A DNA stretch of 64,000 bases from Sialis fuliginosa (taxonomy: Eukaryota > Arthropoda > Insecta > Megaloptera > Sialidae). The position numbers and the translations under genes are program-made. Positions 7,229-45,629 of this stretch are shown piece after piece (positions within the stretch are counted from its first letter, which is position 1; every line of letters begins with the position of its first letter). The notes under the pieces were generated by a model, which did not search any database, was not told the DNA's origin, and was given only the letters and a program-made list of their open reading frames with translations. Location: contig OY540812.1 in the NCBI GenBank assembly GCA_961205875.1, forward strand, positions 32,807,098 through 32,871,097, read 5' to 3'.

Positions 7229-7476
7229 CTTAAACTAAAAATATACACCTCAACCACAATAAAACAATGTCACTCGACACGTGAAGCGAGATAAGCCATT
7301 TTAGTATATATATATAAGGTTTGATCAAAACTGAATCAGACTGGAACTGTTAGGCTCCTGATGAGGACTTTTTGTGAATTCGAAACACGTGTCGAGTGAC
7401 ATTGTTTTATTGTGGTTAAGGTGTATATTTTTAGTTTAAGTGACTAAGAAACCACAGTTTCTCCGTTTTTCCAGTA
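7229..7476 (+). mobile_element. Foldback retroelement-like copy C1 with hammerhead-like core
   Basis: 55-nt arms 7229-7283 and 7386-7440 are near-perfect inverted repeats. They enclose CTGATGA (7358-7364), a stem-loop and GAAAC (7382-7386), followed by GTC (7391-7393). A unique tail to CCAGTA follows the right arm. The copy is flanked by an exact 13-bp direct repeat GTGTTACTGATTA (7216-7228, 7477-7489). A second copy lies at 45422-45629. Penelope-like retroelements are known to carry hammerhead motifs; assignment to that group is inference. Confidence 0.8.
7354..7397 (+). ncRNA. Candidate hammerhead ribozyme core (C1)
   Basis: The order is CTGATGA, a stem II hairpin with loop TTGT (one mismatch), GAAAC, a very short stem III around ACGT, then GTC as predicted cleavage triplet. 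Stem I pairs GCTC with GAGT. One unpaired G lies between CTGATGA and stem II. Activity is untested. Confidence 0.4.
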
Positions 7477-7489
7477 GTGTTACTGATTA

Positions 7490-8639
7490 ACTAAATCGGC
7501 GACCTTAATTTTTATTTGGTATATTTTTTCGTATATTGGGTAATGAATTAATAAGTGTCGAAATCAGATGCGTGTTTTTATTGAGTAAGTATACTTTTAA
7601 CCTTCAAGAGGCGCACTAACCTGTCTTCCCGATTCAGGCGCAAATGGGTATGTCATATCCATTTTTCTTAAATAATTGATTTTATCGATTGTTTTAAATT
7701 TTGACAGTAACATTACAAGGTTCTATTATGCTTCTAATTTATGGTTAATTAACTGTAATGTTGATAATAATTACAGTGAACCTGTAGTGTCCTGTAGATA
7801 TTTCATAAAATCAAGATGGCACCACATTGTTAGAGAAATCTTGCTAAGTGTTCCTTAGTCTTAAGTTGAACCTATTTTACGTCGATCTCACAGGTCTGCT
7901 TTATCATATATGTACATAGTTAGAGTATCACAAAGAATAAAATTCTGAGGAATTTTGATTTTTGGTGTACGTTACTATGGTGCCAGTTTATAATTTGTTT
8001 GTATCCGAGTTAATTAAACCTTGGTTTATGTAACAGAATAAAGATAATCGTTTATGTCAATATAATTTTGAATATAAACTGTAGATTTGTCTATTTTTCA
8101 AACGAACTAGCAAAACTAACACTATAGAGATTTTGTTAAACGAAACAGTTTTTAAAAGGTTAATCTTGACATATCACGAAAATGGTTATATCTAGAATAA
8201 ACTTGGTTTAAAATGTTATAAATAAACTATTATACCCTTATTATAATTATGATATCTGCATCATTGTCATCAATAATTTTATTAAAAATGTTCACAATAT
8301 TCATTTTTGTGTACAGTTCTAAATTAAAAGTTATGAAATTAAAGAATCACTTTGACTAGGACTTAAATTTAGGCGATACTTAACGACTTAAGCATTATTC
8401 AAATAGTTGGTGTAACAATTTAAAAAATATATTTTTAGCGATCTCATCGCTAAATTTAAGCGCTGAGTTCGGTCATGTTGAAGGAAGACGACATTGTCCT
8501 TCAGTGCTGCCAACCGCTTTAAGTGAAATTATACTAACAAATTTGGCCCAGTTACCCCCTTGGTCCAGATACCCCAACTGACATTACCTACAAAAACTGA
8601 AAGAATTAACTTTAAGAAAATATTTTTTCTTTCTTATTT
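7490..8639. other. AT-rich sequence with a small GC-richer patch
   Basis: No gene recognised. A more balanced-composition patch at about 8450-8520 has no open frame of note. Confidence 0.45.
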
Positions 8640-8809
8640 AATATGAAATAATTAAGCTAGAAAACATGTTTATATATGGAATCGTGGGGGTCGGCCGGCG
8701 ATTTAATGCGTCGTAATGAGATTACTTAAAATGGTGGGTGCGCACGATGCTTAGATTTTTAGAAAAACGTCAAAACGAGCCCCAACGGTACCAGTTAAGG
8801 GTTAAAAGT
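8640..8809 (-). repeat. Interspersed repeat family W, copy 1
   Basis: The reverse complement begins TTAACCCTTAACTGGTACCG and shares CTAAAAATCTAAGCATCGTG, CCATTTTAAGTAATCTCA and the ATAAACATGTTTTC end with 56865-57115. Confidence 0.8.
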
Positions 8810-9099
8810 ATAAATATGACAAATATTAATATTTAAGACAATTAATAAGTAACATTGCTAGAATTAAACACAATCACGCTACTACACCAAATTATCCACA
8901 TATAAAATAAATAAACAACACGTCAATACCTGTAGCTGTGACAACATACATATAATATTATCTACATATCAAAATGAGATATACATCAATCACTTATCTT
9001 TAGGTTATGAAAAATATCCACTACTGAAATGTCGATATTTCAATCAATTTTCGTGGGGCAATTTCTAACAATAAATGTAAGTTTTAACAATTAAATTAT

Positions 9100-9687
9100 A
9101 TGTAAAGTTTTAGCACCAGTCTTGGCTGCTTTAAGAGCAAGGTATACGGTTTTTTGGAATTGATGAGCTTCTTTTTATAATTCTCATGAACTCATTTACT
9201 ATTTAAACGAATACCTCTTTATTAAACAATCTTTATTAAAAAAATAATTACCAAAGTCCGCAAATGTAGATTGTTTTTTTAAATTATAGCCTTTTTTCTA
9301 TAGTAATGGATAAAATAAAACCAGTAATAGGCACCCAGTGATGGACACTTGCTAATGATTACAAAATGTTAAGTACTACGACACAAAAGTTATAAAATAA
9401 ATAATTGTATAATTTGAAACAATGTAAAGTAGATTGATAATATAATAATTAATAAATAGATTACACTACAAATTAGTTTAATGTTCACCAGTTTGACACC
9501 CATTAGTCAATTGTCATCAAATTAAACTGGCTTACAGTTAAGTATCTATAGATTATGATTCGGTAATGGCATGCAGTAATCAAATATCAACAAATAGGTG
9601 CCTAATTCTAATGTAATACCTACATTTCATTAAACAAGAGTTCAACATTGAAGTATGATCAAAGACTGGTGCTGCAGTACCTTACCG
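9100..9687 (+). mobile_element. TIR repeat family G, copy 1
   Basis: One end is GGCACCAGT-like (AGCACCAGTC here) and the other is GACTGGTGCTGCAGTACCTTA. The interior shares CTCATGAACTCAT, AAAGTCCGCAAAT, TAATGGATAAA and AGTACTACGACACAAAAG with four other copies. Termini across the family read ATAAGGTANTGGCACCAGTT. It is a non-autonomous DNA element by structure, superfamily undetermined. Confidence 0.8.
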
Positions 9688-9699
9688 TTTATATATATT

Positions 9700-43444: not shown

Positions 43445-43650
43445 TAAGGTAAAGGCACCAGTTATGGCCGCTATAAGAGCAAATTTTCGTTTTTTTTTTT
43501 TTAGATAAATGGGCATGTTTTTTTTTATTCTCATGAACTCATGTCACCAATAAAACAAGTAACTCTTTATTTAATCAATTTAATTACAAAAGTCCGCAAA
43601 TATAGTTTTTTTTATTAATTATAGCCTTTTATTTTGTTCATGTTTTTTCT
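43445..43650 (+). mobile_element. Family G, copy 3 (3' truncated)
   Basis: Starts TAAGGTAAAGGCACCAGTTA and stops after TTTTATTTTGTTCATGTTTT, where family H begins. Confidence 0.85.
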
Positions 43651-44065
43651 CGAAATCCGGATTTTTATGAAATTATCCATTTTGACCTTCCCTGAATCCA
43701 TTCTGACTATTTTCGCCATGATGTCTGTGTGTGTATGTCGGTCTGTCTGTAAACGCTGTAACTCAAATACGACAAATCGTAGATGGATGAAATTTTATAT
43801 TTAAAATTAATTTTTGTCTGGGAAGAAAACGTACAATTTTTGAAAACGATCTTTCAACCGGATACAGATGTTTACCAACGTCGATTTTTGAATTTTTCGA
43901 ATTACTCTGAAACAGTGCGAAATAGAGAAAAATGGTCAAGTTAAAAACTGTAAACTGTAAAAAAAATATTTATTATAATTCAAATGGTTCATAACAGAGA
44001 AGAAATATCTGCCATGAGTGTCATGGGACTTTATTACGTAATACTGAGAGTGAACAGTATGGGTG
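43651..44065 (+). repeat. Family H, copy with both ends of the module
   Basis: CTGACTATTTTCGCCATGAT, GTCGGTCTGTCTG, CAACCGGATACAG and GTCATGGGACTTTATTACGT. Confidence 0.82.
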
Positions 44066-44159
44066 AGTCTAAATAATTACATTAAAAAATTCTTTCTGGC
44101 TAAATCATAAATGTTGAAAAAAATGTATGGGGAATAAATTATAGATAATAACATACTCG

Positions 44160-44345
44160 ACATTTTTTAGAACATTTTTTTCTTATTTCAAAAATAATTT
44201 GAAAATAATTTATATTATTCTATATTATTCATTTTTTTCTATCTTATTAGTTTGTCAGAAATGTTTTAATAAAATAAGAATCATGCATACTATTCACTGT
44301 TAGGATTACGTATAAGAATGTCCCGTGGTTCCCAAGGCAGATATT
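44160..44345 (-). repeat. Family H 3' segment in inverted orientation
   Basis: ATTACGTATAAGAATGTCCC is the inverse of the 3' end just upstream. The two could be arms of one foldback unit. Confidence 0.65.
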
Positions 44346-45409
44346 TTTTACATATTTATATGTAAAAATCGTATATTTCTATGATTTATAATTCCTGAGT
44401 ACTATGTGCACAAACAGGAAATACATTTTTTAAATCCATCCAGTAAGTTGGGTTATATAACAATCTGTGTTGGATTTTCGCAGAAACAAAAGTTTTGATG
44501 AAACGAACTTGGCTGAATGAAACAAACAATTCTATTCATATGTATGTAGCGAATTGAAACACGAATCTATATGTGAAAACAAATTCTCCTGAATTATATA
44601 TAAGATATTTTTATCACAGTCATTGAAATAAATACAAATATCTATCCGGAAGCTTAAACTACTAACTTCTTAAATACACACTTGAGAACATTAATGTTTG
44701 AAAATATTCTGTACTGTGTAAAACTGAATTAGTTAGGAATCAGTATTTCATTTTAAATATTCACTTATTAAATCAGTGAAATTTCTTCAACTTTTGAATA
44801 AATGATTATTCAATACTATTAGTATTAGTGAACAGTTACTTTTAAAGCTATGACAGGTTCTAAGGTTTTTATTTTATTTATTTTTTATGTCAAAAAAAGA
44901 AGCAATCCAAAAAACTCATTCAATATTTAATAATAATATAATAGATAAATAGAAAATCATTATTTTTGGATAGATTTATAATTTTAAAATTTTTTTTATT
45001 GGAAATAAGTTCCGTATGAATAAACTGACCTGAATTTTGTTAACAATTCACTTATAGCAGTTGATTCGTATACGTTGATAAATTAAAGTAAGTAAAGTTA
45101 ATTTCGAAATCATTATTCTTTTAGTGAAATAACTACTAATTCAGTTTAAGAGAAAATTAGATTTGCAGTAATTAGAGTGGATAATTTGTCATTTAAACAA
45201 TATCGACTTCATTATAATAACGTTTTAAAAATAAATGAGCGTTTAATCTTGTAAACCGGAAATAAACAATATCAAAGTAAAATTGCAAACAGTTTAATTA
45301 ATTTCCATTTATTAACAAAATATGAAAACAAATTTAATTAAAGTACCATTTACATATGTTTATGTGAAAGTGAAAAGAATGACAATGATTAAATTGTAAG
45401 TAATTTAAC
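44346..45409. other. AT-rich sequence, no gene
   Basis: No reading frame or paired repeats. Confidence 0.5.
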
Positions 45410-45421
45410 ATAATTGAGATA

Positions 45422-45629
45422 CTTAAACTAAAAATATACACCTTAACCACAATAAAACAATGTCACTCGACACGTGTTTCGACTTGAATCAGTCTGGAAC
45501 TGTTTGGTTCCTGATGAGGACTTCTTGTGAAGTCGAAACTCGTGTCGAGTGACATTGTTTTATTGTGGTTAAGGTGTATATTTTTAGTTTAAGTGACTAT
45601 GAAACCACAGTTTCTCTGTTTTTCCAGTA
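45422..45629 (+). mobile_element. Foldback retroelement-like copy C2 with hammerhead-like core
   Basis: It has the same arms as 7229-7476, here extended to about 65 nt with few mismatches, and the same tail ending CCAGTA. The left target repeat is ATAATTGAGATA (45410-45421). The right one is split by the MITE at 45635-46172 and reads ATAAT (45630-45634) + TGAGATA (46175-46181) once one AT is removed. Confidence 0.85.
45507..45550 (+). ncRNA. Candidate hammerhead ribozyme core (C2)
   Basis: CTGATGA (45511-45517), one unpaired G, a perfect 6-bp stem II GACTTC-TTGT-GAAGTC (45519-45534), GAAAC (45535-45539), a 2-bp stem III with loop TCGT and GTC (45544-45546). Stem I pairs GTTC with GAGT including wobbles. 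The predicted layout is type I with a minimal stem III. Confidence 0.45.

What the first reader, a model, noticed from the sequence alone, without database searches (positions are those of the whole stretch)
7229..45629. Two copies of a short foldback retroelement with a hammerhead-ribozyme-like core
Copies at 7229-7476 and 45422-45629 share long inverted arms, a CTGATGA / stem II / GAAAC / short stem III / GTC core in the right order, and a common tail. Both have 12-13-bp target repeats. Stem II in C2 is a perfect 6 bp. Hammerheads with minimal stem III are known from Penelope-like elements. Here the ribozyme sits between arms that could alternatively fold it away, which would be a regulatory switch.
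Basis: partly seen in the sequence, partly recalled or inferred. Interest (0 to 1): 0.7.

Follow-up and report, generated by a model that had tools for sequence, protein, structure and literature searches.

The report
Short Penelope-like retrotransposon insertions
The two foldback copies are short, independently formed insertions of a Penelope-like retrotransposon with several hundred relatives in this genome; their hammerhead-like motif is of the kind known from such elements, and their inverted arms look like traces of how they integrate rather than a riboswitch.

Summary
Both copies, their long arms, the hammerhead-ordered core and the shared tail are real. C1 has a perfect 15-bp target duplication; none was found for C2. 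In the host genome the exact 27-nt tail occurs 481 times. Long copies carry a reverse transcriptase followed by a GIY-YIG endonuclease, so the family is an endonuclease-bearing Penelope-like element (PLE). It fits published PLE anatomy: an inverted pLTR about 35 nt shorter than the direct one, a tail with an AC-rich stem-loop, short duplications, a hammerhead-like motif. C1 and C2 are not a foldback element that breeds true: 30 of 30 two-ended copies differ in arm length and direct start. In 20 tail-selected copies, 11 of 34 inner ends fall 103-107 nt from the outer end, at an Inr-like TCAGTC about 31 bp after a TATA box; 1 of 34 lies within 2 nt of the predicted ribozyme cut. This suggests two cDNAs, begun at two fixed sites, often run to the 5' end of uncut RNA and joined head to head. 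The 'regulatory switch' has no support. Ribozyme activity is untested; Rfam scores are below threshold and the family is too uniform for covariation.

The parts
7214..7228 (.). C1 target-site duplication, left copy (TAGTGTTACTGATTA)
   Evidence: 15-nt perfect block
7229..7283 (-). C1 left arm: inverted pLTR fragment, outer end at the fixed site, reaching 56 nt inwards
7284..7441 (+). C1 direct pLTR fragment (starts 158 nt from the outer end)
7305..7316 (+). TATA-box-like run upstream of the Inr-like site
7336..7341 (+). Inr-like TCAGAC (usual family form TCAGTC), A at 7338 taken as transcript +1
   Evidence: inferred start site
7352..7401 (+). Hammerhead-like motif type I, minimal stem III; core 7358-7364, predicted cut after C 7393; stem II with one mismatch
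7442..7476 (+). PLE 'tail' with stem-loop GAAAC-CACA-GTTTC, ends CCAGTA
   Evidence: 481 exact 27-nt copies in the genome
7475..7489 (.). C1 target-site duplication, right copy
45421..45485 (-). C2 left arm: inverted pLTR fragment, 65 nt
45488..45594 (+). C2 direct pLTR fragment, starts 107 nt from the outer end, close to the inferred transcript start (A at 45491)
45505..45554 (+). Hammerhead-like motif; core 45511-45517, 6-bp stem II preceded by one extra G, predicted cut after C 45546
45595..45629 (+). PLE 'tail', ends CCAGTA; no target duplication found outside

Best explanation
C1 and C2 are independent, very short insertions of one endonuclease-bearing Penelope-like retrotransposon family. 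SHOWN by sequence: long copies of the family carry RT and GIY-YIG domains; the copies examined end at the same tail; most have a left arm that is the same pLTR end inverted, about 35 nt short of the tail, with duplications of about 8-15 bp outside. INFERRED: the endonuclease cuts both target strands about 12 bp apart; RT copies the element RNA from each cut, starting at the tail site on one strand and at a site about 35 nt upstream on the other; each cDNA runs a variable distance, often to the RNA 5' end at the TCAGTC start; the two cDNAs are joined head to head. This makes the foldback. The hammerhead-like motif lies between the RNA 5' end and the RT start sites; the RNAs copied had mostly not been cut there.
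For: RT+EN: RVT_1 1.2e-12 and GIY-YIG 0.0039 in a 462-aa frame of L019, RVT_1 5.8e-12 in L029; pieces of the same frame in many other held loci. Ends: 29 of 39 copies fetched by similarity to C1 have a left arm; of 20 tail-selected copies 15 by BLAST and 17 on reading have one, 2 have none and 1 is interrupted by another insertion. Duplications: 25 of 30 two-ended copies have an identical block of 9 nt or more at the ends, against 8 of 870 mismatched flank pairs. Independent junctions: 30 of 30 distinct. Run-off: 11 of 34 inner ends (5 of 16 arms, 6 of 18 direct starts) lie 103-107 nt from the outer end; the best 5-nt window clear of that cluster holds 4. TATA about 31 bp before TCAGTC. Published PLE: inverted pLTR 37 bp shorter, 31-bp tail, 9-bp duplication (PMC3846280, passages); two RT start sites bounding the tail, AC-rich stem-loop, both strands cut and extended, unprocessed RNA as dominant substrate (PMC11167929, parts 1-2 of 4).
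Against: No complete element was seen: the protein search of the genome did not complete. GIY-YIG in L019 is below Pfam's cut-off (17.9 against 22.6 bits) and did not show for L029, although the motif GIY...YIG is visible. The frames of L024 and L040 are in pieces. C2 has no duplication, nor have L015, L018, L030 and L044 a block of 9 nt. Arms of one copy usually share diagnostic variants (four sites: same in 10, 13, 13 and 26 copies, different in 2, 1, 1 and 2), so if there are two cDNAs they came from the same RNA or locus, which a single-cDNA model explains as well. 10 of 39 copies show no left arm. The transcript start is inferred from motifs and insertion ends only; the 103-107 window was chosen after seeing the data.
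Confidence: 0.82

Rival explanations
1. The arms come from one cDNA that folds back and primes its own second copy (self-priming, as proposed for rotifer Penelope elements), not from two target-primed cDNAs.
For: Arms within one copy share diagnostic variants; junctions show slight microhomology (6 of 13 cleanly resolved junctions, of 30, have 2 nt or more; 18% expected); self-priming on an antisense template is proposed in PMC3846280 (passages).
Against: The left arms examined lack the tail, whereas snap-back synthesis on a sense template should copy it. The arm is longer than the direct part in 9 of 16 tail-selected copies (one direct length, L052, by reading) and, for example, 1483 against 569 nt in L019, so it cannot be a copy of the direct part alone.
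Confidence: 0.2
2. A small foldback element (MITE-like, or a retrozyme) that propagates as such, with a ribozyme regulated by its arms.
For: Two similar short copies in one window; long arms; hammerhead-ordered core.
Against: 30 of 30 two-ended copies have different arm and direct lengths, 209-2394 bp overall, and tail-selected copies go down to 79 bp. Tail only on one side in the copies examined. No tandem array reported at either copy.
Confidence: 0.04
3. The hammerhead-like core is a decayed or chance resemblance with no cleavage activity.
For: Rfam scores below gathering (18.9, 17.7 and 13.1 bits); one extra G between A9 and stem II; the hammerhead fold (-10.0) is less stable than another fold of the same 58 nt (-14.5 kcal/mol) and the whole elements fold as hairpins at -118 and -110; no covariation; 1 of 34 insertion ends within 2 nt of the cut.
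Against: 35 of 41 copies keep the whole core; strict descriptor once in 1500 random windows; PLEs are known to carry minimal type I hammerheads (PMC7761336, passages; PMC11167929); a distant PLE in this genome has a similar motif, though Rfam does not report it.
Confidence: 0.25
4. The arms are a regulatory switch that hides the ribozyme.
For: The minimum-energy fold pairs the 3' half of the core with the left arm in C2.
Against: An inverted-pLTR insertion with long enough arms has this by construction; arms vary from 18 to 1483 nt and some end before reaching the core; no evidence was available that short copies are transcribed.
Confidence: 0.03

Closest known systems
Penelope/Poseidon-type PLEs with GIY-YIG endonuclease (D. 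virilis Penelope, A. vaga Pen2/Pen3, Anolis PAc)
   Same: RT followed by GIY-YIG; pLTRs, inverted pLTR at the 5' side without the tail, tail of about 31-40 bp, short target duplications, AC-rich stem-loop near the RT start, hammerhead-like motif.
   Different: Many copies are very short head-to-head pLTR pairs; stem III has a 4-nt loop (ACGU) instead of being absent; the ATG in the core opens a frame of only 12 codons, so no ORF runs on from there.
Minimal type I hammerheads of PLEs and Terminons (Cervera & de la Pena 2014; Luense 2017: not held, known from citations)
   Same: Order CUGAUGA - stem II - GAAAC - minimal stem III - GUC; location in the pLTR.
   Different: One extra G before stem II; 2-bp stem III with a palindromic tetraloop, resembling the axolotl retrozyme hammerheads as described in PMC7229834 (passages).
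Metazoan non-LTR retrozymes
   Same: Small, low GC, type I hammerhead, duplications longer than 4 bp (PMC7229834, passages).
   Different: Retrozymes are tandem repeats of about 170-400 bp; these are single insertions with inverted arms and belong to an RT/EN-coding family.

Membership tests
Penelope-like element (EN+) | Reverse transcriptase domain | tested here: met
   RVT_1 1.2e-12 (L019), 5.8e-12 (L029)
Penelope-like element (EN+) | GIY-YIG endonuclease C-terminal to the RT | tested here: met
   GIYKINC..C...YIGQTRR downstream of the RT in the same 462-aa frame; Pfam E 0.0039, 17.9 bits, below its cut-off of 22.6; not reported for L029
Penelope-like element (EN+) | pLTRs, often inverted at the 5' side | tested here: met
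   29 of 39 copies, 17 of 20 tail-selected copies
Penelope-like element (EN+) | Tail of about 30-40 bp at one end only | tested here: met
   about 30-37 nt between arm end and tail end, not in the left arms; copies with two tails or none were not searched for
Penelope-like element (EN+) | Short target-site duplications | tested here: met
   25 of 30 with 9 nt or more; not in C2
Penelope-like element (EN+) | A complete element with the whole ORF | tested here: inconclusive
   Longest frame 462 aa without N-terminal part; the genome search with this protein did not complete
Hammerhead ribozyme type I | Conserved core and three helices in order | tested here: met
   35 of 41 copies with intact core; one extra G before stem II; C1 has a mismatch in stem II
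Hammerhead ribozyme type I | Match to Rfam RF00163 at the gathering score | tested here: not met
   18.9 bits in C1, 17.7 in L011, cut-off 34; C2 was reported only as type III at 12.2-13.1
Hammerhead ribozyme type I | Self-cleavage | not testable with these tools
   needs transcription assay
Metazoan retrozyme | Tandem repeats of about 170-400 bp | tested here: not met
   Tandem Repeats Finder reports no array at either copy; arrangement is head-to-head
MITE / foldback DNA transposon | Terminal inverted repeats at both ends and a constant duplication length | tested here: not met
   35-nt tail beyond one arm; block lengths mostly 9-15 nt

The most novel reading that the evidence does not exclude
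This genome records, in several hundred insertions, that a Penelope-like element integrates by reverse transcription primed on both target strands from two fixed start sites about 35 nt apart, strand-specifically (one tailed, one untailed end), each cDNA able to run off at the 5' end of the same uncleaved RNA, followed by head-to-head joining. The pLTR foldbacks would then be the normal product, and the hammerhead would act outside template use.
Probability: 0.5. Interest if true: 0.6.

Novelty: new member of a known kind. Interest (0 to 1): 0.4.

Why it matters
PLE integration is little understood; PMC11167929 (parts 1-2 of 4) leaves the later steps to be validated. My searches for a two-strand account turned up that paper and the self-priming proposal of PMC3846280; other work may exist outside the library. 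A family with hundreds of insertions, many short and with both ends kept, is a natural experiment: it points to two start sites, shows where templates end, and suggests that RNAs used for insertion were mostly uncut at the hammerhead. It also warns that 'foldback elements with ribozymes' seen in pairs can be one-off PLE products.

Tried and rejected
Foldback element with its own transposition cycle: rejected by the 30 different junctions. Type III hammerhead in C2: weak, and not reported for C1; not pursued. Retrozyme: no tandem repeat. Relatives in viral contigs (two exact patterns) and phages: none. Host identity from ORFs and Pfam (10 ORFs scanned): nothing usable. A first microhomology test compared unlike measures and its p-value is void; the stricter one shows only slight excess, on the 13 of 30 junctions that resolved cleanly. 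The alignment used a wrong orientation for L010 and was not used. One search read L049 in what is probably the wrong frame (stops as X) and found nothing. Passages of PMC12910113 and PMC6431247 gave nothing on the insertion structure. Ends at the ribozyme cut: no peak (45, 50 and 52 nt are the nearest, cut at 48).
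Full report
OBSERVATION. The two copies are homologous. Their arms are 56 and 65 bp with one mismatch each, each private to one copy, so the sources probably had perfect arms. CTGATGA(N8-30)GAAAC occurs in the window only in these copies. C1 is bounded by a perfect 15-bp duplication. C2 is not: its longest shared block is 6 nt.

HAMMERHEAD. In C2 stem II is GACTTC/GAAGTC, 6 bp, with one extra G after the core; in C1 one pair is a C.U mismatch. Stem III is A-U, C-G with a 4-nt loop; stem I has four pairs next to the core. A descriptor with these limits hits the window once (C2) and 1 of 1500 random 64-kb sequences. 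Rfam type I gives 18.9 bits for C1 and 17.7 for L011, a copy with perfect stem II, both below 34; C2 gave only type III at 13.1 and 12.2. Of 41 copies aligned, 35 keep the core letter for letter (L014, L026, L027, L032, L042, L046 do not); stem pairs vary by single changes only, so covariation can neither support nor refute. Folding alone prefers other structures.

FAMILY. The search of the host genome (392 Mb, 20 contigs, unnamed) listed 100 matches, among them several per copy (2081 candidates, 40 scored). The exact 27-nt tail occurs 481 times, control 0. I fetched 39 copies picked by similarity to C1, a set biased towards copies like C1, and 20 copies picked only by an exact tail, the first 20 in order along contig 1.

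ANATOMY. Of the 39, 29 have a left arm; L022 lies the other way round and was dropped from later counts, leaving 28 plus C1 and C2. Their left arms begin within about 5 nt of one point and they share the tail; total length 209-2394 bp. In 25 of these 30 the ends show identical blocks of 9-15 nt (in L013 slightly displaced); of 870 mismatched flank pairs 8 reach 9 nt. C2, L015, L018, L030 and L044 do not. Of the 10 without a found arm, 5 show a repeated block of 9-12 nt somewhere upstream; they were not resolved further. In 30 of 30 the pair (arm length, direct start) is different; arms beyond 1483 nt could not be measured, and L033, L040 and L043 have unassigned sequence between the two parts.

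IDENTITY. L019 encodes a 462-aa frame with RVT_1 (1.2e-12) followed by GIY-YIG (0.0039, below cut-off), the motif reading GIYKIN-C-x2-C-x3-YIG; L029 has RVT_1. The end of this frame lies inside the pLTR. No PDB chain matches by sequence. Literature seen: PMC3846280 (passages) describes an inverted pLTR 37 bp shorter than the direct ones, a 31-bp tail and 8-10-bp duplications; PMC11167929 (parts 1 and 2 of 4) describes two RT start sites bounding the tail, an AC-rich stem-loop, extension on both target strands, a hammerhead inactive without protein, and unprocessed RNA as the dominant substrate. The present tail has GAAAC-CACA-GTTTC. The fit is close.

WHERE cDNAs END. In the 20 tail-selected copies BLAST finds 15 inverted arms; reading the sequences adds L050 and L063, making 17, with L062's arm broken and L067's lacking its first 11 nt. 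L051 and L059 have none; L060 is interrupted by another insertion. Alignment gave 16 arm ends and 18 direct starts; 11 of these 34 lie 103-107 nt from the outer end, p about 1e-8 to 4e-11 for a window chosen afterwards, while the best window clear of this cluster holds 4. That point is the A of TCAGTC, the arthropod Inr pattern (recalled), with TATATATA about 31 bp upstream. I take it as the transcript start. Longer arms (127, 142, 163, 211, 266) need RNAs begun further upstream. The predicted hammerhead cut is at 48 nt: 0 ends within 1 nt and 1 (at 50) within 2 nt; 45 and 52 are the next nearest.

MECHANISM. The tail missing from the left arms, arms longer than the direct part in 9 of 16, and both parts often ending at the inferred RNA 5' end argue for two reverse transcription events from two start sites. 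Against: arms of one copy usually share diagnostic variants (of 161 arm-to-arm differences 152 are private, 9 are at sites variable elsewhere), so the template is the same RNA or locus; a single-cDNA route with jumps is not excluded. Junction microhomology is slight. The two-sided model is thus likely, not shown.

A SECOND PLE. L049, found by the GIY-YIG search, matches the L019 protein at 33% (RT) and 32% (EN) and has, downstream, CTGAAGA-GTC..GAC-GAAACGTA on its minus strand, a hammerhead-like motif with loopless stem III and a 3-bp stem II; Rfam does not report it.

VERDICT. The finding is a member of a known kind, correctly sensed as Penelope-related, with the switch idea unsupported. The family as a whole is a good record of PLE integration.

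Noticed in passing
L049, minus strand, about 909-880: A distant second PLE in the same genome with a hammerhead-like motif with loopless stem III (CTGAAGA...GAAACGTA) downstream of its endonuclease.
   Followed up: partly
L029:1453-2379 (+): A 308-aa open frame beside a PLE copy that looks to me like an envelope-type ORF of an insect gypsy-like element (recalled, not searched).
   Followed up: no
L060: A PLE copy split at TTAA by an insertion with ends CACTAGAAAGACGG / CCGTCATTCTAGTG, suggesting a piggyBac-like non-autonomous element.
   Followed up: no
window 45630-45690; L022 and L061 flanks: The same host repeat (ATAGGCATGATGCCAGTA...ACTGAAATTATGATT) flanks C2 and another PLE copy (L022 and L061 are one locus), at slightly different insertion points.
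   Followed up: no
window 36029-36401: Tandem repeat of 10/20-bp units (AGATCGTTGT type); frames of 168 and 136 codons lie over it on the two strands.
   Followed up: no
window 33642-33677: A third hammerhead-descriptor hit (CTGACGA...GAAAG) without stem I; probably chance.
   Followed up: no
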